Part shown: one piece after another, positions 35,313-50,671 of the stretch
How the letters are laid out: every line of letters starts with the position of its first letter
Numbering within the stretch: position 1 is the first letter of the stretch
From: Nitrospira sp.
Lineage (GTDB): Bacteria; Nitrospirota; Nitrospiria; Nitrospirales; Nitrospiraceae
NCBI GenBank assembly: GCA_030444405.1
Contig: JARFPM010000038.1
Coordinates: 1 to 50,671 of the forward strand
Length of the DNA stretch: 50,671 bases
Reading direction: 5' to 3'
The notes under the pieces: model-generated
Seen by the model: the letters and a program-made list of their open reading frames with translations, nothing else
The model's database searches: none
Told to the model about the DNA's origin: nothing
Program-made: the position numbers and the translations under genes

Positions 35313-36722
35313 TTACCGGGTGCGCAGTTGTTCCACTTGCCCCTGGGCCCGAGCCAGATTGACGCGCGAGGCATGCACGCGGAAGAGGGCGTCGATCATG
35401 TTGTCTTTCGCGCGCACGAGTGAAAACAACGCGTTCGACAATTCCAGCGTGTTGGAGCTCAACGTCCGGATGCGTTCCCGTGCAAGGCCCACCTCGGTCA
35501 GCGAGGCTTTGAGGCCGTCTTTCGCGATCCGCTGTTGTTCCAGTGAGGCTCTCAGGGTGACCAGCGCTTCTCTCACTTCCATGCCGACTTGGTTCTTGAC
35601 CAGGACCAGTTTGTAATTTTCCTGGTTGAATTCGCTCACACTCTGCCCGATGCGACCTTCGCGTTGCCCTCCATCGAAAATCGGAATCGACAGCTGGACT
35701 CCGACATTGTAGGTGCCGGTCGTGTTGTCGAGTCTATTGCCGATCAGCCCGTAGTTGCCCTCCGCCGACAGGGACGGAAGCCGCTCACTCTTGATCGATC
35801 GCAAACTCAATTCCGCGGTCCTGATCCGTTGCGTCTGTGCCTTGAGCTCAGGCCGATTGACGCTGGCCGCCTCCAGAGCGCTTTCCAACGATGGAATCAG
35901 CCCGTCGTAACCCTTCATTTCGTCCGTGAGCTGAAGCGTGACGTCATAGCCGATCCCGATTGAATTGAGCAGCGTAAACTTGGCCCGCTCCACCTCTCCC
36001 TTGGCCAGTTCGAGCCGCTGCCGTTCATTCTCCAACTGAGTTTCCAGTCGCGCCGCGTCAAGACCGGTCGCCATACCTCCCGCCAGCCGATTCTTGACAA
36101 ACGCGACCAGATCTTCATACAGAGTGACGTTGGCCGATCGGGCCTCCAGCGTCTCCCGATTGCGCAGTACCTCGAAGTAGGTCAGGGCGACCTTGGCGAC
36201 GGTATCATTCTCGGTGGTCGTGGAGTCCAGTTCCGCCACCTGGAGAGCCGAGCGGGACGCCCGCCACCGTTCGATCAGACTCAGACTGAACAGGGACTGG
36301 GTGAAGGAAGCGCGGCCGTCGAAGAGATCGAACGGATCGGTCCGACGCGGCGGCCCCCCGAGGGAACCTAGGAAGAAAGTTTGGTTGTTGTACTTGCCGG
36401 TGGACGCAATGTTCGGAAGTAACCCGCCCAATTGGGTTCGGGAGGCTGCGCGCGCGGCCTCGATCTTTTCACGAAACAGGCGAATGTTCGGATTCTTGTC
36501 GAGTGCCGCGTCGATGGCCTCCGCCAACGACAGCTTGAGCACCGGCAGATTCTCGGTCGGCAGCGGACGCGTTGGGCTCTCTTGAGCCAGCGCAGCACTG
36601 CTGGCTGACAGAATTCCGGCTAGGACGAAGAGCGCCGCTTGGGTCCAACAACGGGCGACTCGCCCGCACGTTCGGCCCTGCGACACGTCCGCCCCTCGGC
36701 CTGTTCGTAGATTGAGTCTCAT
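35313..36722 (-). CDS. TolC-family outer membrane channel protein
   Basis: The 469-residue protein has a signal peptide (residues about 25-46, ending SSAALAQ) and two TolC-type repeats made of long helices with LSLAEAIDAALDKNPNIRLFREKIEAARA at the first and RPELKAQTQRIRTAELSLRSIKSERLPSLSAEGNYG at the second, plus the beta-barrel strand segments FDGGQREGRI. TolC proteins form the outer-membrane exit duct of tripartite exporters. GGGAGAGAC precedes the ATG. It is the last gene of the secretion run, 14 bp after the HlyD gene, so it probably serves as the exit channel for that system. Confidence 0.9.
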   Translation of the reverse strand: MRLNLRTGRGADVSQGRTCGRVARCWTQAALFVLAGILSASSAALAQESPTRPLPTENLPVLKLSLAEAIDAALDKNPNIRLFREKIEAARAASRTQLGGLLPNIASTGKYNNQTFFLGSLGGPPRRTDPFDLFDGRASFTQSLFSLSLIERWRASRSALQVAELDSTTTENDTVAKVALTYFEVLRNRETLEARSANVTLYEDLVAFVKNRLAGGMATGLDAARLETQLENERQRLELAKGEVERAKFTLLNSIGIGYDVTLQLTDEMKGYDGLIPSLESALEAASVNRPELKAQTQRIRTAELSLRSIKSERLPSLSAEGNYGLIGNRLDNTTGTYNVGVQLSIPIFDGGQREGRIGQSVSEFNQENYKLVLVKNQVGMEVREALVTLRASLEQQRIAKDGLKASLTEVGLARERIRTLSSNTLELSNALFSLVRAKDNMIDALFRVHASRVNLARAQGQVEQLRTR

Positions 36723-36736
36723 GTCTCTCCCATTCT

Positions 36737-37609
36737 CTAATGCGTCGTATGAAACTTCACGGTGCAGGCAAGCCCGGCCGGCAAGGTGTTATTGAGGTTC
36801 GGCATTTCCAGACGGACTCCGAACGTCCCGCTCGCACTGTCTACCACACGATTCACGACGGTCACGTGAGCTTGATAGGTGGTCGAGGCATTGCCTTCCG
36901 GTCGCACATCCGCCTTCATGCCCGGCGTCAGCTTTCCCAGCAGGCTCAACGGAGCGAACACTTCGATCCGCAGGGGGTTGATCTGCGCCAGTTTGAGGAT
37001 CGGCGTCTTTCCAGCCAATTCACCGGGAGACAAGAGCCGATCGACCACGACCCCGCTGAGCGGGCTATAGATCGTGCGGAGATTCAGAGCTGCCGTGACC
37101 CGATGCCACTCCAGTTCGTCGATGTGTTTCTTTTCGGTCGCCTCCAGATGTGCCGTTTCCGCGAGAACCTTTTCTGTTTGAGCTTCATCGAGTTCGTGCT
37201 TGGCGATTGAGTTGGATTGGTAGAGATCCGTCGCCCGCTCGAGCTTCCTCGCGCTGAAGGCCATTTTTGCCTGCGTACTTTTAATCGTCGCCTCCGCCTC
37301 CGCCTTTGCTTTGGCCAGCGCAACTGTGGCCTTTTCCACACTTGCCTCCAACGTGACGATGGCCTGCCCCTTAGACACCCAATCGCCCCGCTCGACATGC
37401 ACCGTCTGGATCATGCCTTCCACCGGCGCCCCGATGGACACTTCCATATAGGGCTTCATGATACAGGCCAGATTGTCGGCAGCTTCAGCAGCGACGTTCC
37501 AACCCAAACAGCCGACGGCACAACACAGCGAAGCCCATACCAGATTACGGCAGCGACGCAGCCCACTCCTGACACGCCGGTCTACCAACTCCGGATCCAT
37601 CCTCAACAT
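36737..37609 (-). CDS. HlyD-family periplasmic adaptor
   Basis: From ATG 37609 the product has 290 residues. A hydrophobic N-terminal stretch (VWASLCCAVGCLGWNVAAEAA) looks like a signal or anchor. The first lipoyl half has SIGAPVEGMIQTVHVERGDWVSKGQAIVTL, followed by an alpha hairpin with strong heptads (EKATVALAKAKAEAEATIKS), then the second lipoyl half TIYSPLSGVVVDRLLSPGE and a beta-barrel. Adaptors of this type bridge an inner-membrane part to TolC. The frame is open to 37813, but that extension overlaps the SecA-like gene. It lies 19 bp after that gene and 14 bp before tolC. Confidence 0.88.
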   Translation of the reverse strand: MLRMDPELVDRRVRSGLRRCRNLVWASLCCAVGCLGWNVAAEAADNLACIMKPYMEVSIGAPVEGMIQTVHVERGDWVSKGQAIVTLEASVEKATVALAKAKAEAEATIKSTQAKMAFSARKLERATDLYQSNSIAKHELDEAQTEKVLAETAHLEATEKKHIDELEWHRVTAALNLRTIYSPLSGVVVDRLLSPGELAGKTPILKLAQINPLRIEVFAPLSLLGKLTPGMKADVRPEGNASTTYQAHVTVVNRVVDSASGTFGVRLEMPNLNNTLPAGLACTVKFHTTH

Positions 37610-37628
37610 CGTGCGGCCACTCCTCCCG

Positions 37629-39540
37629 TCATTCCACTCGTCCTGAAAATGCGAGCGTGGATTCGAGCTGATCTTCATGCTGGAGCAACTCCCGGCGCAC
37701 GCGGGCATGCAGCCGTTCCGCGGACCGCTGGGCCAGCCGCACCAGCAAGCTTGCCAACCATCCCTCCAGCGGCTGGCCTGACTTGAGCAGCAATCGCGCC
37801 ACCCATCGGGCAACGGTTCCGTGAGAGGTGGTCAGCAGCTCGTCCTCGAGCGAGGTCACCGCTTCGTAACTGCCGGGATCTCCCTGTCGGCCCGCCCGCC
37901 CGTAGAGCTGCCGATCGATGCGTTGGGCTTCATGCCGTTCGGTCGCCAGCACATGGAGCCCACCGGCCGGTGCCACGGAGCGGGTCAATTTGATGTCGGT
38001 CCCACGTCCCGCCATATTCGTCGCCACTGTGACCCGCCCCCGCTCGCCGGCTGCAGCCACGACCGTCGCCTCCTCCTGATCCTGTCTGGCATTGAGTACC
38101 ACATGCTCGATCTTTGCCCTCTCCAATTGCTTACTGAGGATTTCGGACGCGGCGACGGAACGGGTCCCGACCAGGACGGGACGACCCTGTCCACGCAGCT
38201 CTCCAATCCGATCCACGACCGCGTCCCACTTCTGGTCCGCCGTGGCAAACAGCCGCTCCCCCCGCCAACGACGCTGGAGCGGGCGATTCGTGGGGATCGT
38301 GACCGTCGCGAGTCGGTAGACGTTCCAGAGCTCGCCGGCGACCTCCTGCGCGGTTCCGGTCATCCCGGAGAGCCAGAGGTACCGCCGGAAAAATCGTTGG
38401 TAGGTCATCCGCGCCAGCGGCGCGTTCATCGGCGTAAGGGGGCAACCCTCCTTCAATTCGATCATCTGATGCAGGCCATGTTCCCACGATCGGTCGCCCA
38501 TGACGCGTCCGGTGTATTCATCGATGATCTGGACCTTCTCATCCCGGACGAGGTACTGCATGTCGCGATGAAACAGGTACAGGGCGGTCAGTGCCTGACG
38601 AACCAGCTCTTCCCTCCGCCTCGGCCCCGACCAAATTCCTTTCAGATCGTGGGCCCGCTTCGTGAGCGTCGCCTGCCCCTGGGGAGTCAGACGGATGCTC
38701 CGTTCCCGCCCGTCGAGCGAGAAGTCCTGTCCACGCTCCAAGCCCCGTGCAAGCCTCAGGGCCGTTTCATAGATCGGCTGTTCCGGGACCTGGCCGCCGG
38801 CGCCTGAAATAATCAGGGGGACCCGCGCTTCATCCACCAGCACACTGTCCGCTTCATCGACGATGCCGAAGCAGAGGCCCCGCAGGACCAACTGCCTCAG
38901 CCTGGTGGCATCGCCGTACAGCCGCTCCAGTTGCAGCTGAATGCGATTCGGGTGCCGCCCCACCACCAACCGATCCCGGAGATAGTCGAACGCCAGTTCT
39001 TTGTTGCAGCAATAGGTCACGTCACAGCTGTAGGCCCCCCGCCTCGCGACAGGATCGAGCTCATGGGTGACGGCGCCGACGCTGAGTCCGAGCATCTCGT
39101 AGAGTGGTCGCTGCCGCCAGCGTAGCGGTGAGTGTCTTGCCTTCTCCGGTCGCCATTTCTGCGATGCAACCGTTCAGCAGCACCCACCCTCCGACAATCT
39201 GGACGTCGTAGTGCCGTTGCGCGAGCGTCCTGTGCGCCACTTCACGGACCAGCGCGAAGGAACGGCACACCAGCTCCTCCGACAGACCGTCGCGGCGCAA
39301 TCGGTCCCGCAGCTGCTTGGCCTGTTGCGTCAGCCGGTCGTCCGACAATCGCTCAAGGGCGAGCCCTTGTTCTGCGACTTGAGTCACAATCGTCGTCTTC
39401 AGACATCGCCGCACACGGAGACGACGAAGCAGCGGACTGGCCAGTCGCGCCCCTTGACGGTCGAACCACCCTTCTTTCGGTACATGGCGTTCAGGGTAGG
39501 CGCTGTGTAGCGCGGTGCGTTCGCGAGCGAGATCAAACAT
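37629..39540 (-). pseudogene. SecA-like ATPase without the C-terminal SecA domains, frameshifted by an internal deletion
   Basis: Two frames together make a SecA motor. The first (ATG 39540) covers the N-terminus to the Walker A loop MATGEGKTLTATLAAA (residues about 129-144); the second resumes at LYEMLGLSVGAVTHELD (about 39107-39095) and continues with TYCCNKELAFDYLRD, VDEADSVLVDEARVPLIISG-type Walker B, NMAGRGTDIKL and YGRAGRQGDPGS. About 27 residues that relatives have between these points (including motif Ia, VVTVNDYLAxRD) are missing, out of frame. Counting both parts the protein would have about 640 residues: it ends soon after the second motor domain and has no scaffold, wing or zinc tail of housekeeping SecA (about 900 residues). 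Such SecA paralogues are suited to a dedicated substrate. It overlaps the M50-HlyD stop by 8 bp. Confidence 0.8.
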
Positions 39541-41680
39541 TGAATCGCGCCAGGAACAACTGGCGTCCCTGCCGATACCATTGGACGGCCAACGCTTCTC
39601 TGCCGTGATCGAACCGCACATACACCCGCCCGCCGACATTAAGGATGCCGTGTTGGACAGGCAACTCAAGATCCATCTGGAACAGTTTCTTGATGGCTTT
39701 TTGCCCCTTGGCATCGTGCGGGTCGAGCGGCACCTGGCCCCCACCCTCGCTGCCCAAGGCCGGGCTGGGCAGTTCTTCGCTGGCGGCCGGAACCAGGCGG
39801 GTGATCGTCGCCGGCATCGGGTCGGCCAGCCGCTCCGCCAACCGGACCTCGACATCCTGGATCTGATGCCGAATCAGGTCGATATCGCTTTGATCGACAA
39901 TGGTGCGGACGATGATCGTCTTGAGATCCACCACATGAGCCAACAGCTCGCCACGCTTCACAAATCGCCCGGGCAGATCCGCCGCCTTCGGTAGCACGAA
40001 CGTCCCCGCTGCCCGACTGCGGATCACCAGCTCCGACTGCCGTTCTCGTGCGCGGGCCAGCCGCTCCTCGATGTACCGTTGCTCCTCTTCCAACATTTTC
40101 GCCTTGACTAAGTCGTCGACCAATTGCTCCCGAATCCGCGCATTGATCTCTTGCAGTTGCCCTTCGAGCACCTTCACGTCCGTCTCGATGGCGGGGTCGC
40201 CACAGACCACCAGTAGATCACCCGGCCGGACGTTCGAACCAGGCGCCGCCACAACCCGTGTGACGAACCCGTCAACTTCGGCTCGGACGAACGCCTCGTC
40301 GGGAATCCAGACCACGCCCTCCGCCCTGGTCCGGAACGGCACCGGCACGAGCGCCAGCACAGCCACGAGTCCAGCCACCACAGCCATGCTCACTGCGACG
40401 GCCCGCCCGCGCACCCGACGAATCCGGCGACTCGTGCACAGATAGTTCACCCCTTTGCCCAACGGCAGCACAAACCAGGTCCCGGCCGTCAGGACGGCAA
40501 ACACCACACCTAGGAGAAAGAGCTGGTCCGTGAGATAGAGCAGAATGGCGGCGACAACCAGTACCCGATACACGAACGAGGTGACGGCATAGGCGACGAA
40601 CCAAGCCCGTTCGCCTGCCGTGGCATGAGGCACCGGCGCATCATCACGCCCGAACAGATAGCGTTCACAGAGGTAGCCAAGATAGGTATTGGCCCGCTGG
40701 CGGAGATTCGGAATTTCCAGAACGTCGGCCAGCATGTAATAGCCGTCAAAGCGCAGGAGCGGATTGGCGTTGAAGATCACAGTCGAGATGCCGGCAATAA
40801 AGATGGTATTGTAGGCCAGGGTTCTCACCGTGCCCGGTTCGACGCTGACCCACACGAACATCGCGATTGACGCGAGCACCAGTTCCACCAGCATGCCCGC
40901 CGCCCCCACGACCACGCGCTGCCATTTACCGGCGAACGCGGAAGAGGCCGAGGCATCCACATAGGGCACAGGCGAGAGGACCAGGAGCATGATGCCCATT
41001 TCGTGGACCTCGCCGCCGAATACCTTGACGGCGAAGGCATGGCCGAATTCATGCAGAGCCTTGATCACGGGAAAGAGCAGCCACAACAGCACAAGATTCT
41101 GCGGCGCCATCACACGGTCGATCAGATTGGCGGTGAGATCGGACCAGTGAGCCGCGCCGACCAGCAGGGCCGGCCCGACGATGAGACACCAGAGGGCCGC
41201 GCCCCACCAGGAAAAGAATGGACGGATGAGCGAGGCGAACTGCTGCAAGAACCGTTCAGGATCGACCAGGGGAAACTGCCAGGCGAACACGTTCATCAGC
41301 CGCCGCTGCCATTTGCGCCGGCGCTGCTTGTCATAGCGGGCCAGCAGCTCGGCGGTGTCCGGGGGAATGTCGCACTGCAATACGTCCGCGGCATGCAGCT
41401 GACTCAGCAACTGGACGACTTCCGGCTGGGTGGGGGCGTTATCCCCGAGCCGGGAGGAGGAGAGGTCCCAGATCTGCTGCACCGACCTCTTCCCGTCCAT
41501 CAAGCCGATGAACGAGAAGGCGGATGGGGAAAACCGGTGGAACCGTTCGTTTGAACGGTCCTGCAACACGTACCAGGTCTGTCCGCGATATTGATGCCGG
41601 TGCAACTTGGCATGGCTGCGAAGGCGCGGAGCGAGCGACGCGACGCGATACCAGGATGGGCTGAAGAGCGCTTCACTCAT
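39533..41680 (-). CDS. PqqD-like/M50 metalloprotease/HlyD fusion membrane protein
   Basis: The 715-residue protein combines three parts. Residues about 25-110 resemble a PqqD/RRE-like winged helix (YRGQTWYVLQDRSNERFHRF and later HAADVL). Residues about 150-450 form a multi-pass membrane region with the site-2-protease motif HEFGHAFAVKVFGGEVHEMG (HExxH near 211-215) and NANPLLRFDGYYMLAD, the second metal-ligand motif. Residues about 465-715 form a HlyD-type lipoyl/hairpin adaptor (RAEVDGFVTRVVAAPGSNV; RSRAAGTFVLPKAADLPGRFV). Fusions of this type occur in peptide and protein export systems. The start ATG 41680 follows AAGG. It is intact, unlike its neighbours on both sides, and likely forms the inner-membrane platform of the system. 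Confidence 0.88.
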   Translation of the reverse strand: MSEALFSPSWYRVASLAPRLRSHAKLHRHQYRGQTWYVLQDRSNERFHRFSPSAFSFIGLMDGKRSVQQIWDLSSSRLGDNAPTQPEVVQLLSQLHAADVLQCDIPPDTAELLARYDKQRRRKWQRRLMNVFAWQFPLVDPERFLQQFASLIRPFFSWWGAALWCLIVGPALLVGAAHWSDLTANLIDRVMAPQNLVLLWLLFPVIKALHEFGHAFAVKVFGGEVHEMGIMLLVLSPVPYVDASASSAFAGKWQRVVVGAAGMLVELVLASIAMFVWVSVEPGTVRTLAYNTIFIAGISTVIFNANPLLRFDGYYMLADVLEIPNLRQRANTYLGYLCERYLFGRDDAPVPHATAGERAWFVAYAVTSFVYRVLVVAAILLYLTDQLFLLGVVFAVLTAGTWFVLPLGKGVNYLCTSRRIRRVRGRAVAVSMAVVAGLVAVLALVPVPFRTRAEGVVWIPDEAFVRAEVDGFVTRVVAAPGSNVRPGDLLVVCGDPAIETDVKVLEGQLQEINARIREQLVDDLVKAKMLEEEQRYIEERLARARERQSELVIRSRAAGTFVLPKAADLPGRFVKRGELLAHVVDLKTIIVRTIVDQSDIDLIRHQIQDVEVRLAERLADPMPATITRLVPAASEELPSPALGSEGGGQVPLDPHDAKGQKAIKKLFQMDLELPVQHGILNVGGRVYVRFDHGREALAVQWYRQGRQLFLARFNV

Positions 41681-41836
41681 CAATAAAAACCTTGAATGCT
41701 CGTACGCAAGGCATCCTTCGTGACGCGCAGGCGAGACAAGCGAGATGTGCGTGACAGGCGCGACCCGCGAAGATGCAGCTTCCGCCTCGTCCCACCCTTC
41801 TCGCGCATCTCGCGAGTCCCGCGCGAATCAGACCTA

Positions 41837-43506
41837 TCACGGCAGCCATGTCCAGACGGTCAATCGGATCCAATCCACGACTTGATGCGTCCAGATCCAG
41901 ACCAGCAGGCGCTGATCGATCTCAATCTTGCCCGCGCCTTCCATCGCCGGACGAAGCCTGTCGTGGGGCTGATCCAGTGTGGCTTCCACGCGGAAGAAGT
42001 TGCGTCCCTCCTTCGCCGTGGACACGGGCGTGACTTTCGTGACCGTGACCCCAACCGGGTCGGAAGGAAAGGCCGAGAGCAAGAGCTGGCCGTGCTGCCC
42101 CACCTGCACGTCGGCGATGTCGCGCTCGTCAACTTCCAGCACCACGCGGTAGCTGTCGAGCGGGGCGATCTCGAACAACACCTTGCCTTTTTCCACCGGA
42201 GCCCCCAGCGACTGGGTCCAATCTCCGCTGACGACGATCCCATCGAAGGGCGCGATCACGCGGGTATGGGCCAGCTGATCATCGAGCAGCGCGATCTCCG
42301 ACTCGGCCTGGTGCATCTGCGCAGTCAGAATCTCGACCTTCGCCGCCTCCCGCTCGGTCAAGGCTTTGTGATACTCTTTCCGATATTCTTCGAGCTTGCT
42401 CAGCGACTTCACCCGTTCAAGTCTCAACTCGCGATCGTCGAGCGTACCAAGCACGTCGCCGGACTGCACCAGGTCGCCGGCGCGAATGGGCGCCTCCCGG
42501 ATATAGCCGTTGAATGGCGCCGCGGCCGCTCGTTGAACGACCGGCTCCAAGACTGTCTTCGCCGACACTCGATAGTCGCCCTTGGCCAGGAAGCAGAAGA
42601 CCAGCAGGGCTGCGAGCGACGCCGTGGTTAATTTCAGAACGACATGGCTGGGCCCAAGCAGGTCGCCGACAGACCGCGTGACCGAATCCCAGATCTTGGC
42701 CCCCAGCCACCGATCGTCGCGTCGATGGATCTCCAACACGGGCCCTCGATGGCTTCATCCATAGCCTCGGCCAAGCCGCGCATGACGTTGGTCTGTGCTT
42801 TGAATTCGGCACTGTGCGACACGGCAGCCACCCGTGCCCGTCCTCGCTTCACGAACCCAATGCTGACACGGTCGCACGAGAGGCTCGCCGCCAGCGTATT
42901 CACCAGCGCCATCGCCGAGGCATAAAACCGTTCGTGGCCGACGGACGTCGCCACCAGATCCAGCGCGGTCTGTACCCGCTCACGCGTCTCTTTTTCAGCC
43001 GCCGCCGCATCGCGCGCAAACAGCAGCTCCAGCCATGCGGCCCCCCAATGCAACTGCCGCATGATCACTTGCATATGGACATCCGACAGGGCCGGCACTT
43101 CGATCACGGCTGCCCCACAAAGCGCGCCACGCAGGTCAATGGGATAGCCGACGGCACAGTGACTCTGCTCCAATTCACCGTCCACCGCTTGCCGGCGAAC
43201 CACCACACCACGCCGCTCGGCAAACGCGCGCTCGGCAGCCTTCGTCAAATGAGTCAACGCCTGGGAACCCTCCGGCCAACTTGCTATGGGACGAAACGGG
43301 CCTCGTCCCGGAGGACCAAGGAGCACGAGCCCCGATCGCACCCCTTCGACCATGCGACATTGCAGGGCCAGCCATCCCTGGCAAAAGGCAGCCGTTGTCG
43401 TGGCTCCGGCGAACGCAACCCATGGCCCGGCGTCCTGCAGTACAGGTTCCTGAGCCGCAGCCTGTTCGCCTTGCGGAGGACCATGCTTCAGATGGGCTTG
43501 ATGCAT
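41837..43506 (-). pseudogene. GAF-HlyD fusion adaptor, frameshifted by an internal deletion
   Basis: The N-terminal frame (ATG 43506) encodes a GAF-type sensor region (two GAF-like halves; the second has LAASLSCDRVSIGFVKRGRARVAAVSHSAEF and GLAEAMDEAIE). It breaks near 42740-42747. The other frame, starting around GTG 42739, begins LEIHRRDDRWLGAKIWDS, which is the end of the GAF region, and then gives one membrane helix (LKLTTASLAALLVFCFLA) and a HlyD adaptor with lipoyl halves APFNGYIREAPIRAGDLV and APFDGIVVSGDW. In relatives the two parts form one protein, with roughly 70-80 more residues of GAF fold at the break. So an out-of-frame deletion lies here. The M50-HlyD gene follows 156 bp downstream. 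I infer a fused sensor-adaptor for the same exporter. Confidence 0.75.
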
Positions 43507-43929
43507 CTGCAACTCTCGATCAGCTCACTTGGTGCCGATTGGGACACAATGAGCACCATCCCTCGGCAGCGGATCATACATCGCACTGGACCGCAGTATC
43601 ACCCATCCCGTCCTACACTGTCGAGCAAAAGCATTGATTTAGGAGGGGAGCTGACGACAGCAGGAAGGGGCAGAGCCAGTTCGCACGGTTGAGGGAAAGA
43701 AGATCAAAGACGGAATCGAGAATGTATAAGTCGAATGGAAACGGCACAACCACGGAAGGGCTGTCCCGAACGGATCAAGATCTACGGAGCAACTGTGAAG
43801 AACAGCCTCACACAACAGACAACCGATATAACCTCTGAGGTCCTAACAACGCAAGTGCAGATGTTCCGACCTCTCGCAAGATGCACCAGGCAGGGAGTCG
43901 ATTCACGACTCCCTGCCATACGGTGTGAA
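43507..43929. other. Non-coding stretch between the RTX gene and the secretion run
   Basis: Apart from the strong hairpin near the RTX stop (listed separately) there is no gene. On the minus strand TCGACA (43624-43619) and GATACT (43600-43595) are 18 bases apart and could be a weak promoter for the GAF-HlyD gene, about 90 bases upstream of its start. The rest, about 43625-43885, shows nothing recognisable. Confidence 0.35.
43889..43917 (-). terminator. Strong hairpin after the RTX gene
   Basis: GGCAGGGAGTCG and CGACTCCCTGCC form a perfect 12-bp stem around the 5-base loop ATTCA, 12 bases after the stop of the RTX protein gene. It is the most stable hairpin I found outside the large palindromes. 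The bases after it on the minus strand have no T-run, so it may act in mRNA stability or Rho-type termination rather than as a standard intrinsic terminator. Confidence 0.55.
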
Positions 43930-44797
43930 TCAGATATTCGTGATCTTATCGCCGTCCTTAGTTGCCGAATTGATATCCGTAATCTTGTCGCCCGATCCGA
44001 TGATGAACCAGTCGTGTCCTGAACTTCCGGTCAGTTGGTCGGCGTCCTCGTCCACTACGTCACCATCGTTATTGTTGTCCCCCAGATCCCCATCTGCAAT
44101 CCAGTTAGCAGCCCAGTTATCGCTGATCGTTCGGAGAGAGTCATAGTTATGACCCTGCAGATCTCCAGCAACCAGGATGTCATGGCCGGCCGAACCGACT
44201 AGCCGATCTGATCCGTCACCGCCGATGAGAACATCGTTTCCTGCGGCTCCGGTGAGGGTATCATTTCCTTGATCGCCCCAGAGCACATCGTGCCCAGCGC
44301 CGCCGGAGATCGCATCGTTCCCGTCACCGCCATGGGATTCGAGATTGACGTTCCCGGTCAGGCTGATGTTGTCATCGCACGCCATCCCGTACACGATCAC
44401 GTGCCCACCGGCTCCCACGGAGTAGGAACCAGTGCCGTTAACGGTGACTGCACTCGGGTTGGTGGCATTCACCGCGATGGTGTCGCAACCATTGGTACCG
44501 ACGATGAGGACATTAGCCCCGTCCTGAACTGTGGTAATGACGCTCGGCGTCAAAACGGTCAGCGTCCCAGGGTTGATGGTCACATTATAGTTGGATACCA
44601 ATCCGCTCCCGTTGCTCACGGAACCATTGATCGCATAAGGTCCCACCAAGGCTGCCACCGGGACACCGGCGCTGGTGTACGTAATGGCAAGATTCTCGCC
44701 ATTGACGCCGGTGTTGACGGTCGTGCCTAAGGCAACGGCGAGATCAATGGTCTGACCGAATACCTTTGAGGCATTGGCGATTGCGATGGTCGCAACC

Positions 44798-44945
44798 GCC
44801 TTATTGATCGTGAGCGTGGCCGTGCCGCTGGCATCGTTGTAGTTCTGCAGCCCGGAGATCGACGCCGTGGTCGTGCCGGAATCGGCTACGTTGGTGCCGG
44901 TCTTCGAGTTGCTGGCCAGCGTTCCATCACTGCCCACACCCGGCC
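44798..44945. repeat. Direct repeat, copy A, inside the RTX gene
   Basis: This 148-bp segment reads the same as 45240-45387 (442 bp apart). It encodes GTLASNSKTGTNVADSGT and the following TASISGLQNYNDASGTATLTINKA part of an MBG-like domain. Past a 26-base insert absent from the other copy, the identity continues for about 36 bp. Identity at the DNA level suggests a recent duplication or gene conversion. Confidence 0.85.
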
Positions 44946-45239
44946 GTGTGCGCCCCACCATCATAGATGCCCGTGTAATCGACCACGTTCACCGTCGCCG
45001 TGGCCTTGGCAATCGCGTTATTGACTGTCCCAGACGTGTTGTTGTAATTGCCCGTGCCAGTGAAGATCCAGGCGTCACCGGTGTAGGTACCCGCATTGGT
45101 GTGCGTCGTGCCGCTCAGGTCCACCGAGCCAACCGTCGAGCCGTTCTCCCCGTTCACGCCCGTGATCGAGGTCACGCTCGCTGTGTGCGATGACCCGTCG
45201 TAGATCACGCTGTAGGCCGCGACCACGACCGTGGCGTTG

Positions 45240-45387
45240 GCCTTATTGATCGTGAGCGTGGCCGTGCCGCTGGCATCGTTGTAGTTCTGCAGCCCGGAGA
45301 TCGACGCCGTGGTCGTGCCGGAATCGGCTACGTTGGTGCCGGTCTTCGAGTTGCTGGCCAGCGTTCCATCACTGCCCACACCCGGCC
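45240..45387. repeat. Direct repeat, copy B, inside the RTX gene
   Basis: This is the second copy of the 148-bp segment at 44798-44945. The identity ends at CCCGGCC; here the following 26 bases of copy A (44946-44971) are missing, and the shared GTGTAATCG then resumes. The loss is not a multiple of three, and it is bounded by short GCC repeats, as expected for slippage or a mis-joined assembly. Confidence 0.85.
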
Positions 45388-47217
45388 CGTGTAATCGACC
45401 ACGTTCACCGTCGCCGTGGCCTTGCTCACCGTCACATTTGTACTGTAGTCGGTAAAACCGCCGTTCTGGTCGATGATTCTTCCCCAGAAGGTATAATTGC
45501 CGGCATTGAGGTTAGTGAAGTCCTGCGAGGCAGTCTCACTGCTTCCACTGGCATACGTAACACCGGTTAGTCCCGCAGCAGTGGTAGCGAAGGCATAGTG
45601 GAAGCCAGCCGATGTGTCACTGTTTGAGGGATCAGATGCACCGGTAAAGCTGATGGTAACTGTCTCGCCATACGTCTTTGACCCATTGTTCTGCAATGTG
45701 GCCGTCGGTGCGACGTTAAGGACGCTGACGCTCAGAGCATTCGCCCGATTCAGGAACGTGCCGTCCCCATCGATAAGGTCCACCGTCACGTTATAGGCAT
45801 TGGGTCCGTCGGCGTAGGTGTGCGTCTTAACGCCGTTGCTGCCGTAGGTATTGCTGGTGCCGTCGCCCCAGTGCACCAAGTAGCTGCTGACTGTGTCCGT
45901 CCCTGGATCGCTCACCGCGCCCAATGTCAGGCTATACACCGCACCTTCGTTGACGGTGGGGGCCCCACTGATCGCGATGGTCGGTGCGACGTTGTTGACC
46001 GTGAGACTAAATGTGGTACTCGACGAGGTAGTCCCGTCATTCGCCGTGATAGTCACCGTTGTCGGGCCTGCCGGGCCATCAGTTGGCGTGTACGACCATG
46101 ACCATGTACCGCTTGCATTGGTACCTGATTTGGTCACGGTCCCGACCGATGCACTCAATGTGACGGTATCGCCTAAGTTCGCATCCGACCAAGTTCCAGT
46201 ATTGATTGCCGTTGTGCCTTCATTAACCGTAACCGCAGCATTATCTCGATTGATGACCGGCGCGGTGTTGACCGCCGGAACTGTGACTGCGATGGTCAAA
46301 CCAGATCCTGGCCCAATAGGCGCAACTGATGGACTAGCAACTGCCTTCACGGAATATGTGTTCGCTGCAACGCCTGAACCGACATAGATAGTGAACGTAT
46401 AGGTGATTGTCCGATCTGTTGCTGTAGCGCCCGAACCAGTATAGACTGTACCGATAGTACCCGCATCACTATCGCTTGTTGCAGTGTAGATAACACCAAT
46501 CTCACCGGCACCAGGAGTAGAACTGTTGACCACCGTAATACTTGGTGACCCAGTTGACGCAAAGGTAAACGTCGGCGTCTGCGTTCCATTGTTTCCTGGT
46601 ACCGTCAAAACCACATTGGTGACAGAAGTAGAGCTTCCAGCAGCAATCGTGGCTGTCGTTGTACCGCTATAAGAAAAGGCCCCCGCATCCGTAAACTCAT
46701 GCGTTGCCACGGTGCCAGATGCAAGACCGGTCGCTGTCACAAGAAGTGATGAACTCGCATACTGATCCTCGACGAACCACGTGGTGCTGATGCTGCCGTT
46801 CACCGTGCCATCGTTGTCGGCCCGAACCCAGTCGAGCTGGCCATCGCCGTTCACGTCAGTTTGATACGCGTCAACTCCACCGTCGATCACATACCAGGGC
46901 AGATTGCCGCTTGGAAAATCCGGAACCTCGTCGGTGCGGGTCACCTGGAACTGAACCATTTCTCCTTCTGCAAACGTGGCGCCATCAACCGTGCTGGGCG
47001 TGTTGGTCGCCGTGATGACCGCCGTCTCCCCCGGAGAATAGTCCGCCTTGTCGGTGATGACGACGGCTTCCATCGGGGTCGCTGACAGCAAAATCCGATT
47101 TTCAAGAGACTCCAGAATAAACACGTCACGAGATGGCTGAGACTGTGTCGCGAGTTGCCGGGTTGCCTTGCGGCCGTTGTGCCCGTTACGTTTCAGCCGA
47201 TTAAGCCATTTCGCCAT

Positions 47218-47697
47218 GATTCCGTCTCCCTTTGTTAATGACCCTTCCTTACACTTGCCGATTACCGTTCCGAAACTCGACACATTCGAATCCACCTATC
47301 GTCAGCGCGCATGGTGCATGAACATTCACGCGAACGCCCCACTGGTCCCACTCTCCGGCGATGCCTGGTCTACACACCGCCATTCGTACAGCGAGAATAC
47401 GCGCAATGACTGTCCGGAGAAATTATGCGAAAGGGGTGAGGAAGAAATGCCGCGGGCTACTGCTATTCGTTGTGGTTGGATTTTTTCGAGTTGTCCTGCC
47501 TACGCTGAAATTGGGCATTCGAATGCTTCTGACTTTGCAGGGAAGCCAAAGGCACCAGGGTTTCAGGAGATTCCGCTCGTTATTCGCAGCGGACTAACGA
47601 ACGATAGCACCCGATTCCGACACAACAGCCGTCCTGATCTCCGTCAGGAGCAGAGGTGTTCTCAAAAATCGGGGGCGTGGACGTCGGAAGAGCGGTC
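47218..47697. other. Non-coding stretch upstream of the LEPR-XLL/RTX gene
   Basis: The minus strand, which should hold the leader and promoter of the RTX gene, shows no credible gene. A 273-codon plus-strand frame crosses it but has no ribosome site, unusual composition and no known domain, so I do not call it. I did not find a convincing promoter pair. Confidence 0.4.
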
Positions 47698-48325: not shown

Positions 48326-50671
48326 CTAGCCCGCAGAATTCATGTCAGTCAGCACCTCTTGGACGGTCAGCGCGCGGTTGTAAATGCGCAACTCATCGAG
48401 CGAGCCCCGAAAGAACTGTTGGATATTGTTATCGGCGCCAACCTGGAAACCATTGTTACGACCGGTAATCGTCGCCGTAAGTGAGACGGTCGTCACAAGC
48501 ACACCGTTAACATAGTACCGTACCTGCGACCCATCAAAAACGACTGCAAGATAGCTCCATTGGTCTAGTGCGAGCGCGGAGCCCATTGATGCTGATAGTG
48601 GCCCGCCAGCTGTACCAATAAATAAGTTCGGCACCGTGCCCCCTGTGAGTTCCAGCCCATATTGATAGTATGGACTGGTCATCGTTGGGTTCCAGAATTT
48701 ACCCAAGACAACGGAATCACCTCCGGAGATCGTCTGCGGCTTAATCCACATACTGAGCGTCAAGCCGCTTCCAACGAAATTCAACGATGACGAATTCGGC
48801 ACAGTGATGTAGTCATTCACTCCATCGAACGTGAGACCTCCCCCATAGTTCCCCGTGGTTCTTGCAATCCCGTTAACAAGGGTGGCCGTGTTCCCGTTGC
48901 CGGACATGTCCAGGGCGCTGGTTCCAGAGGTCTCATTGAAATTCCATCCTGCCACGAGCCCGGAAGGTAATGGATTGGCCACGACTGTGTAGTTCGCGGT
49001 ATAGCTTTGGGCCGCTGTCGGCACGGTAATCGTATGCTGTTGCGCCCCGCCGTCCGACCAGGAGGCAAAGGTATAGGAGTTCGCCCCCACTGTCTGATTG
49101 CGCGCCTCTATTGTGTGATTAAAACCGATTAGGGTGTCATAGACGAACGGCGCGGTATGTGCGATTCCATCCAGGTAGATGGTGAGGCCGCCGGGTGCCG
49201 TATCGAACGTGAGATTGACCTTATCCGGGTAGACAATGGAAGTCCGAGTCGTCTGCAAGCCAGAGGAATCAGCGACCGTGAGTGTGATGCGATAGCGCGT
49301 GTCGCCACTGAAGTCATGCCCGGACGTTGGGATCGTAAACGTGCCACTGCTGACACCGGTGAGGAGAGCACCAGGGTGAACGTGTCCACCATGGAGGAAA
49401 TCGATCATCCAGGTGAAGGCGCTGTCCGGAAGCACACCATCTTCAACATCCGACGCTGTTGCGCTGAAGGAAATCACATCGCCAGCTCTGAACAATTCAT
49501 TATTCGCTGGGGTCGTGGTGAAGGTCGTGATGACCGGTTTGTTGCCTACGCTGATCGCAATCGGCGGCGAGATCGTTGAGTTGACCCCATCGGAAACCGT
49601 CAGACGCGCCTGATAGATCCCGGCATTTGCATAGGTGTGCTGCGGATTGGCCAGGGTGGAGGTCTGACCATCGCCAAAGGTCCAGGAGTAGGTCAGCGGC
49701 TGGCCTTCGGGATCTGAGGAACCCGCACTCGAGAAGGTGACCGTCAGCTGCGGCACACCCTCAGTCGGAGTGGCCGACGCCTGGACCACGGGCGGCAGGT
49801 TAGATTGAATGTACTCGATCCGACGGAGTTTGCTGATACCAAACGTGCCGCCGACATCCGAATACCCAAGGTCGAGGTAGTACAGCGCCCCTTCGGGTCC
49901 CTCCGTGAGATAGACGATGTCGCCGTAGGGTCCGTCGACCGAGCCGTCGGCGGGCTCGAAGTTGAACACGCCGGTGACATTGCCATTGGCATCCAACGTC
50001 AGACGCTTGATCCAATTCTGCGTGTAGTCGGCGAAGAAGTAACTGCCCTGATAACTGCTGGGGAACTGGGTCCCGTGATAGACGAACCCGCTGGTGATTG
50101 AGGCATCCCGCCCGTTATGGGGATAGGAATAGATCGGATTGGTATAGGCGGGATTGGTGGAGTTTCCCTCAACGTTGGGCCAACCATAATTGGCCCCCCG
50201 CGCGCCGAGATTCAGTTCTTCCCTCGCCGTCGACCAGTCGTTGCCGCCGACGTCGCCGATGAATAACCGACCAGTCGGCGCGTCGTAGTAGGCGCGGTAC
50301 GGATTGCGCAGTCCCAGCGCCCAGATCGCGTCGTAATGGGGTCCGGTGCCATCATAGAACGGGTTGTCTGTCGGGACTGTGCCGTCGGGATTGAAGCGCA
50401 AAATCTTGCCACGCGGGCTGGTCAGGTCCTGGGCCGGCGTGCCTTGGAAATGGTCACCAGTGGTGACATAGATCTTGCCGTCGTTGCCGAAATTAATCGC
50501 CCCGCCGTGGTGCTCCGTGTCTGCGATTTGGGGATCCTCATAGAGGATGACCTCGCTGCCGGCAATGGTTCCGTCGAGGTTGCTGTTGGCGGTGAATCGG
50601 GACAGGCGGTCTTTATTCGGGGAATCATTCGTATAGAACACGTAGTAGTAATGATTGGTGACGAAGTTCGG
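48326..50671 (-). CDS. PQQ-type sugar dehydrogenase/PKD/LamG protein, 5' end outside the window
   Basis: The frame is open through the right edge of the window, with 10 more codons (PNFVTNHYYY) upstream of the first possible start at 50641, so the N-terminus lies outside. The visible part of about 781 residues has a GSDH-type beta-propeller (HHGGAINFGNDGKIYVTTGD, RGKILRFNPDGT, IWALGLRNPYRAYYD, REELNLGARGANYGWP), a PKD domain (VTFSSAGSSDPEGQPLTYSW), further beta-sandwich domains, and a C-terminal LamG/concanavalin-like domain (DGVNDYITVPNSSSLNF to the end). Such proteins are exported and act on or bind polysaccharides. The C-terminus has no sorting motif I know. It is on the same strand as the secretion cluster and may be another cargo. 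Confidence 0.82.
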   Translation of the reverse strand, partial: PNFVTNHYYYVFYTNDSPNKDRLSRFTANSNLDGTIAGSEVILYEDPQIADTEHHGGAINFGNDGKIYVTTGDHFQGTPAQDLTSPRGKILRFNPDGTVPTDNPFYDGTGPHYDAIWALGLRNPYRAYYDAPTGRLFIGDVGGNDWSTAREELNLGARGANYGWPNVEGNSTNPAYTNPIYSYPHNGRDASITSGFVYHGTQFPSSYQGSYFFADYTQNWIKRLTLDANGNVTGVFNFEPADGSVDGPYGDIVYLTEGPEGALYYLDLGYSDVGGTFGISKLRRIEYIQSNLPPVVQASATPTEGVPQLTVTFSSAGSSDPEGQPLTYSWTFGDGQTSTLANPQHTYANAGIYQARLTVSDGVNSTISPPIAISVGNKPVITTFTTTPANNELFRAGDVISFSATASDVEDGVLPDSAFTWMIDFLHGGHVHPGALLTGVSSGTFTIPTSGHDFSGDTRYRITLTVADSSGLQTTRTSIVYPDKVNLTFDTAPGGLTIYLDGIAHTAPFVYDTLIGFNHTIEARNQTVGANSYTFASWSDGGAQQHTITVPTAAQSYTANYTVVANPLPSGLVAGWNFNETSGTSALDMSGNGNTATLVNGIARTTGNYGGGLTFDGVNDYITVPNSSSLNFVGSGLTLSMWIKPQTISGGDSVVLGKFWNPTMTSPYYQYGLELTGGTVPNLFIGTAGGPLSASMGSALALDQWSYLAVVFDGSQVRYYVNGVLVTTVSLTATITGRNNGFQVGADNNIQQFFRGSLDELRIYNRALTVQEVLTDMNSAG

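What the first reader, a model, noticed from the sequence alone, without database searches (positions are those of the whole stretch)
39533..41680. Fusion of a PqqD-like module, a site-2-protease core and a HlyD adaptor in one protein
An RRE/PqqD-like fold binds leader peptides in peptide-modification pathways, the HEFGH membrane protease could remove a leader, and HlyD links to TolC. All in one chain suggests a unit that recognises, cleaves and hands over a substrate. The active-site motif HEFGH and the NANPLLRFDG motif are both intact.
Basis: partly seen in the sequence, partly recalled or inferred. Interest (0 to 1): 0.6.

Follow-up and report, generated by a model that had tools for sequence, protein, structure and literature searches.

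The report
Membrane hub for exporting giant proteins
One bacterial protein joins a peptide-reading domain, a membrane protease and a secretion adaptor, and its genes travel across many phyla with giant proteins that share one short N-terminal tag, so it is probably the inner-membrane hub of a secretion machine whose cargo was previously unknown.

Summary
The fusion is real. ORF 39533-41683(-) carries an RRE/PqqD fold (profile E 3.6e-5 to PqqD; the lone-domain model matches PqqD and leader-bound RREs), a site-2-protease-type M50 core and a HlyD adaptor. HExxH and the second motif's Asp are invariant in 93 of 93 relatives. The locus is not new: Kamneva et al. 2015 (PMC4452313) described M50/HlyD + GAF-HlyD + HlyD + a truncated second SecA, role 'completely unknown'. 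No text I could search names its cargo. Here the cargo is indicated: giant RTX/Ig/cadherin proteins with the N-terminal LEPR-XLL motif. In 274 Gammaproteobacteria the fusion and the motif co-occur (25 of 29 motif genomes have the fusion; p=2e-21). 67 of 73 surveyed fusion-bearing genomes carry the motif, usually in a 4,000-14,000-aa gene next to the machinery. Two subtypes exist, with and without SecA, and each has its own motif variant (41 versus 13, one change on the tree). None of 93 loci has an ABC exporter. Best reading: an ABC-less, type-I-like secretion machine whose RRE reads the LEPR tag. Motif binding, cleavage and energy source are inferred. This window's GAF-HlyD, SecA and RTX genes are broken, probably by misassembly.

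The parts
39533..41683 (-). PqqD/RRE - M50 - HlyD fusion protein (716 aa from TTG; ATG one codon in)
41378..41641 (-). N-terminal PqqD/RRE module, residues 15-102
40349..41209 (-). membrane part with M50 core, residues 159-445, seven hydrophobic helices
41039..41053 (-). HEFGH zinc motif, residues 211-215
   Evidence: H211, E212, H215 in 93/93
40742..40771 (-). NANPLLRFDG, residues 305-314, second metal-site motif
   Evidence: P308 and D313 in 93/93
39593..40345 (-). HlyD/MacA-like adaptor part, residues 447-697
47065..47121 (-). LEPR-XLL motif (FILESLENRILLSATP) of the RTX/Ig protein: proposed export tag
45328..47295 (-). N-terminal frame of the RTX/Ig protein (Big_9 repeats)
44927..45379 (-). 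middle frame of the RTX/Ig protein
43930..44964 (-). C-terminal frame of the RTX/Ig protein (MBG domain, RTX repeats)
42634..43512 (-). GAF half of the GAF-HlyD gene (one ORF of about 635 aa in relatives)
41837..42739 (-). HlyD half of the GAF-HlyD gene
42745..42746 (.). probable assembly junction: about 220 bp missing against orthologues; 42658-42745 is identical to the end of contig C68
39061..39540 (-). SecA-like ATPase, first frame (NBD1, GEGKT); start inferred from orthologues
37629..39107 (-). SecA-like ATPase, second frame (DEAD box, preprotein-binding, P-loop); about 80 bp missing at 39107
36737..37813 (-). third HlyD-family adaptor (mechanical ORF; HlyD part from about 37459)
35313..36722 (-). 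TolC-family outer-membrane protein

Best explanation
The protein is the inner-membrane hub of an ABC-less, type-I-like secretion machine for giant proteins that carry an N-terminal LEPR-XLL tag. The cytosolic RRE/PqqD module reads the tag as RREs read RiPP leaders. The seven-helix M50 core forms the membrane part and clips the substrate, at the tag or at a membrane-embedded segment. The fused HlyD part, with GAF-HlyD and the third HlyD, links to TolC. In subtype A (this window) a SecA-like ATPase without wing and scaffold domains probably drives or primes transport; subtype B lacks it. SHOWN by computation: the fold and motifs; the conserved gene set without an ABC exporter; the tag in neighbouring giant proteins, far above chance; co-occurrence across genomes; subtype-specific tags. 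INFERRED: that the giants are exported, that the RRE binds the tag, that M50 cuts, the cut site, and the energy source.
For: The tag regex occurs 40 times in the first 160 aa of ORFs in these loci and 0 times in 542,621 residues of ORF bodies. 44 of 50 fusion-bearing genomes have the tag, and 23 other loci carry it inside the locus. In 274 Gammaproteobacteria: both 25, fusion only 14, tag only 4, neither 231, p=1.6e-21. The giant gene ends within about 1.6 kb of GAF-HlyD in 18 of 21 cases computed. The tag variant splits exactly with the fusion clade, 41 versus 13, one change, 0 of 500 shuffles; the window's genome holds both subtypes, each beside its own tag variant. PqqD/RRE fold. M50 site 93/93. 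No exporter-sized ABC ORF in 93 loci or the window. SecA-like protein ends 71-88 aa after motif VI in 54/54. Substrates have no hydrophobic signal-peptide-like stretch before the tag, 0 of 39.
Against: No experiment shows secretion, binding or cleavage. 14 of 39 fusion genomes in the Gammaproteobacteria sample had no detected tag. Co-inheritance of one operon makes the co-occurrence and the subtype split partly non-independent. Seven of the surveyed subtype-A-like loci have no SecA-like gene, four carry one without Walker A, DEAD box or motif VI, and subtype B lacks it, so SecA cannot be the universal motor. In this window three genes of the set are broken.
Confidence: 0.68

Rival explanations
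1. The M50 part is only a membrane scaffold or pore, not a working protease, as Kamneva et al. suggested; the RRE and HlyD parts do the work.
For: The 2015 paper proposes the M50 proteins as candidates for the inner-membrane pore. Seven hydrophobic helices fused to HlyD fit a structural role.
Against: HExxH and the second-site Asp are invariant in 93 of 93 across phyla, which a pure scaffold would not need. The closest named families of residues 19-405 are RiPP-maturation proteases.
Confidence: 0.25
2. It is a regulated-intramembrane-proteolysis or surface-release device: substrates leave by SecYEG or another route, and M50 later cuts a C-terminal membrane hairpin to free or retain them.
For: A subset of substrates ends in a conserved two-segment hydrophobic hairpin with PAWxxxDPLPxL; all 11 of 274 Gammaproteobacteria with it also have the fusion and the tag. 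Some machines lack a SecA-like gene.
Against: Most RTX-type giants, including this window's, lack the hairpin. The substrates have no signal-peptide-like stretch before the tag. It leaves the RRE and three HlyD-family proteins plus TolC unexplained.
Confidence: 0.2
3. It is a RiPP maturation and export unit: the PqqD module binds a small precursor's leader, M50 removes it and HlyD exports the peptide.
For: daptide_HExxH matches all 19 members of A3 and the YydH/LiaK family matches 17.
Against: The daptide score is 180 against a cut-off of 300. The window neighbours examined include no precursor or modifying enzyme. The conserved partners are giant proteins.
Confidence: 0.06

Closest known systems
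SecA_DEAD / type-I-related locus of Kamneva, Poudel and Ward 2015 (PMC4452313)
   Same: Same gene set: second SecA_DEAD protein, M50+HlyD protein, GAF+HlyD protein, HlyD protein, sometimes OEP; no ABC exporter found. They too proposed SecA as ATPase and M50 as membrane part.
   Different: They state that the biological role is completely unknown. The terms PqqD and LEPR do not occur in the paper. The SecA-less subtype B and the tag-subtype match are added here.
LEPR-XLL domain, NCBIfam NF012209
   Same: The window RTX protein passes its cut-off (21.2 vs 17 bits); this is the tag.
   Different: In the held papers it is only a label on giant proteins, without a named machine. The subtype B variant LE[SP]R[LI]MFD[AG]A is often missed by the model.
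Daptide intramembrane metalloprotease (NF041824)
   Same: Same order of PqqD-like and M50 parts; 180 bits over residues 19-405.
   Different: Below its cut-off of 300; the 379-position model stops before our HlyD part; substrates there are small peptides (from the model's name).
Type I secretion system (HlyB/HlyD/TolC)
   Same: HlyD-type adaptors, a TolC-family protein, RTX-repeat cargo.
   Different: No ABC exporter; proposed signal at the N terminus; M50-HlyD and a truncated SecA instead.
Bacterial SecA
   Same: DEAD motor, preprotein-binding and P-loop domains at high scores; top PDB matches are all SecA.
   Different: About 660 aa; ends 71-88 aa after motif VI; no wing/scaffold match. By general knowledge of SecA this removes the two-helix finger.

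Membership tests
Kamneva 2015 SecA_DEAD / type-I-related locus | second SecA_DEAD protein beside a canonical SecA | tested here: met
   canonical 952-aa frame on C35 plus the C8 copy (in two frames)
Kamneva 2015 SecA_DEAD / type-I-related locus | M50+HlyD, GAF+HlyD and HlyD proteins adjacent | tested here: met
   GAF-HlyD is split in this window
Classical type I secretion system | ABC exporter | tested here: not met
   none of exporter size in 93 loci or the window; one encoded elsewhere cannot be excluded
Classical type I secretion system | HlyD-type adaptor and TolC-type outer-membrane protein | tested here: met
M50 / site-2 proteases | HExxH plus second metal-site Asp | tested here: met
   93/93
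M50 / site-2 proteases | S2P core fold | tested here: inconclusive
   profile finds 3b4r E 0.0022 and 7w6x E 2.5; the fold search was filled by HlyD
M50 / site-2 proteases | intramembrane proteolysis | not testable with these tools
   needs an experiment
PqqD / RRE | three strands then three helices, PqqD sequence profile | tested here: met
PqqD / RRE | binding of a leader or N-terminal tag | not testable with these tools
   no complex prediction available
LEPR-XLL domain (substrate) | score over the NF012209 cut-off near the N terminus | tested here: met
   21.2 vs 17 bits, residues 59-77 of the ORF
Daptide metalloprotease NF041824 | score over 300 bits | tested here: not met
   180 bits
Canonical SecA | wing/scaffold C-terminal domains | tested here: not met
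   no SecA wing/scaffold match at E 0.01 in two intact relatives; short tail in 54/54

The most novel reading that the evidence does not exclude
A distinct secretion system class, widespread in Gram-negative bacteria: an RRE domain reads an N-terminal LEPR-type tag on proteins of up to about 14,000 residues and feeds them, in one subtype with a truncated SecA motor and in the other without, through an M50-HlyD hub to TolC, with tag-linked intramembrane processing.
Probability: 0.45. Interest if true: 0.85.

Novelty: new variant of a known kind. Interest (0 to 1): 0.62.

Why it matters
Many bacteria carry single genes for proteins of 4,000 to 14,000 residues, and how they cross two membranes is open where no ABC exporter is nearby. 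The 2015 paper left the second-SecA locus without a role. Joining the two gives each side its partner and makes both testable: a short tag, a domain that should read it, a protease that may cut it, and a lab strain (Methylobacterium extorquens AM1) in which the 2015 paper lists the four genes. If right, it extends RRE-type peptide reading from small modified peptides to some of the largest bacterial proteins, and it gives genome annotators a way to link LEPR proteins to their machine.

Tried and rejected
RiPP reading: weak, see rivals. A search of viral contigs with the whole protein found no relative. Foldseek with the whole model was filled by HlyD matches, so the M50 core was not tested by fold; I spent the second structure job on the RRE domain instead. 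The LEPR-XLL model alone made 13 of 21 fusion-bearing relatives look tag-less; reading the loci showed most of these carry the variant LESRLMFDAA beside the fusion. I first took the split SecA and GAF-HlyD frames as pseudogenes; the 220- and 80-bp gaps and the perfect 88-bp overlap with C68 point to misassembly. I considered a double-glycine-like cut after LLSA because conservation drops there but have no test. A first motif-VI pattern was wrong and was corrected. Paper searches for a later account of the locus found none in the held library; subscription journals are mostly not held.

Full report
WHAT WAS CLAIMED AND WHAT IS THERE. The window holds a 716-aa ORF at 39533-41683 on the minus strand. 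The claim of three modules in one chain is correct. Residues 15-102 are PqqD/RRE: weak by Pfam in the single sequence (E 0.016), but 55 of 71 relatives hit PqqD on their own, and a profile of the domain finds three PDB sequences only, all PqqD. AlphaFold2 of the whole chain gave pLDDT 87.2, of the domain alone 88.7. The domain model matches GdmN, NovN and Rv2067c domains, PqqD 5sxy (Z 9.1) and RREs solved with leader peptides, 5v1u (Z 9.3) and 6jx3 (Z 9.2).

M50 CORE. PF02163 is found at the family cut-off, and residues 19-405 match the daptide metalloprotease model at 180 bits, below its cut-off of 300. The profile of residues 1-440 finds the site-2 protease 3b4r (E 0.0022) and weakly RseP. 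In 93 fusion proteins H211, E212, H215, P308 and D313 never vary. Seven hydrophobic helices put the RRE in the cytosol if the HlyD part is periplasmic.

HlyD PART. Residues 447-703 match MacA, MexA and relatives (Z up to 15.4).

NEIGHBOURHOOD. On the same strand lie, in gene order, an RTX/Ig protein with a LEPR-XLL motif, GAF-HlyD, the fusion, a SecA-like protein, a HlyD protein and a TolC-family protein. The genome has a canonical SecA elsewhere. A second, diverged copy of the machine sits on contig C114: TolC, HlyD, GAF-HlyD-like, fusion (27% identity), then a giant protein with the motif LEPRIMFDGA and no SecA.

PRIOR ART. [quoted passage not shown] They wrote that the broader role is completely unknown; PqqD and LEPR are not mentioned. 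LEPR-XLL appears in two held papers only, without a machine.

THE LINK TO GIANT PROTEINS. In the Nitrospira-like relatives all 8 genomes with a LEPR-XLL match also have the fusion. A regex for the motif is found 40 times in the first 160 residues of ORFs of the loci and never in 542,621 residues of ORF bodies. A genome-contig scan returned the 80 best loci of at least 422 relatives. 23 of these show the motif inside the locus; of 50 others, whose genomes were searched whole, 44 have it, in frames of up to 13,738 aa. Where positions could be compared, the giant ORF ends within about 1.6 kb of GAF-HlyD in 18 of 21 cases (contig identity inferred from coordinates in part). Two Phycisphaerae genomes carry 10 and 14 motif matches spread over many contigs, as expected of a transferable tag.

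BACKGROUND TEST. Of 274 Gammaproteobacteria drawn evenly from the class, 39 have the fusion and 29 the motif. Both: 25; motif without fusion: 4, of which two are in frames under 170 aa. Fisher p=1.6e-21, or 9.5e-21 without the chosen centre. Relatedness between genomes inflates this number; the sampling was by class, not corrected by tree.

TWO SUBTYPES. Subtype A consensus is E-x-L-E-P-R-x-L-[LF]-[SA]-[AG]-[DG], with E(-2), E(1) and R(3) in 28 of 28; subtype B is L-L-[SA]-L-E-[SP]-R-[LI]-M-F-D-[AG]-A-A in 9 Nitrospirota cases. Gammaproteobacterial loci repeat the pattern. On a tree of fusion proteins the motif variant changes once: 41 against 13, SH-aLRT 99, 0 of 500 shuffles as low. L223 sits on a long branch and its place is unsure. 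One split is one event, so this shows co-inheritance more than repeated co-evolution. Several genomes hold both subtypes (G000, G005, G011).

SecA-LIKE PROTEIN. Intact relatives have DEAD, preprotein-binding and P-loop domains and no wing/scaffold. The protein ends 71-88 aa after motif VI in 54 of 54; the alignment to Thermotoga SecA stops at residue 646 of the chain. Four loci have a SecA-like protein without Walker A, DEAD box and motif VI, and seven with enough room have none. So a live SecA-like motor is common but not universal.

MECHANISM. Shown: modules, conserved catalytic residues, gene set, tag, co-occurrence, lack of a nearby ABC exporter, lack of a signal-peptide-like stretch before the tag (0 of 39). 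Inferred: RRE reads the tag; M50 cuts near it or in a membrane hairpin; the HlyD proteins and TolC give the outer path; SecA-like protein feeds subtype A. The weakest steps are cleavage and energy.

WINDOW-SPECIFIC CAUTION. GAF-HlyD, SecA and the RTX gene are each split. Against relatives about 220 bp are missing at 42745/42746 and about 80 bp at 39107, and 42658-42745 is identical to the first 88 bases of contig C68, which carries another LEPR protein and a GAF-HlyD end. This looks like misassembly between two similar loci; real decay is not excluded. The fusion ORF itself is intact.

VERDICT. Observation confirmed; interpretation partly supported; the system is a known locus with a newly indicated cargo and a second subtype.

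Noticed in passing
L014:1-2967, L050:10455-16502, L051:5162-10690, L059:5230-9678, L060:2120-8854, L078:8758-14565, L130:2601-6161, L141:8687-11356, L142:2-3340: A subset of LEPR giants (many with DUF4347) ends in a conserved hydrophobic hairpin, about ALSxGFVxWLLRxGxLLASxLxSxPAWxxFDPLPVL, then a charged tail. No Pfam or NCBIfam match covers it in four examples; all 11 of 274 Gammaproteobacteria with it also have the fusion and the tag.
   Followed up: partly
L077:12188-14113, L094:12348-13883, L099:12692-14869, L114:12854-14575: SecA-like proteins in the usual place that lack Walker A, DEAD box and motif VI: apparent ATPase-dead relatives kept in the operon.
   Followed up: partly
window 42745/42746 and 39107; L015:1-88: Probable assembly junctions; C68 starts with 88 bases identical to window 42658-42745 and carries its own LEPR protein and GAF-HlyD end.
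   Followed up: partly
genomes of L137 and L139 (Phycisphaerae): 10 and 14 tag matches spread over many contigs, against 1-2 in most Proteobacteria: possibly many cargoes for one machine.
   Followed up: no
L223:7552-9699 and L064:123-2351: Fusion proteins about equally far from both subtypes (25-28% and 22-26%); L223's genome has the tag variant LEDRILLDAN: perhaps a third subtype.
   Followed up: no
L015:8511-10328: A 605-aa ORF that reads like a SagB/ThcOx-type dehydrogenase (by eye, not searched) lies 4 kb from the LEPR protein of contig C68.
   Followed up: no
window 48326-50671: Incomplete protein with a glucose/sorbosone dehydrogenase domain, PKD repeats and a laminin-G-like domain, next to the RTX gene on the same strand; it may be another surface protein.
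   Followed up: no
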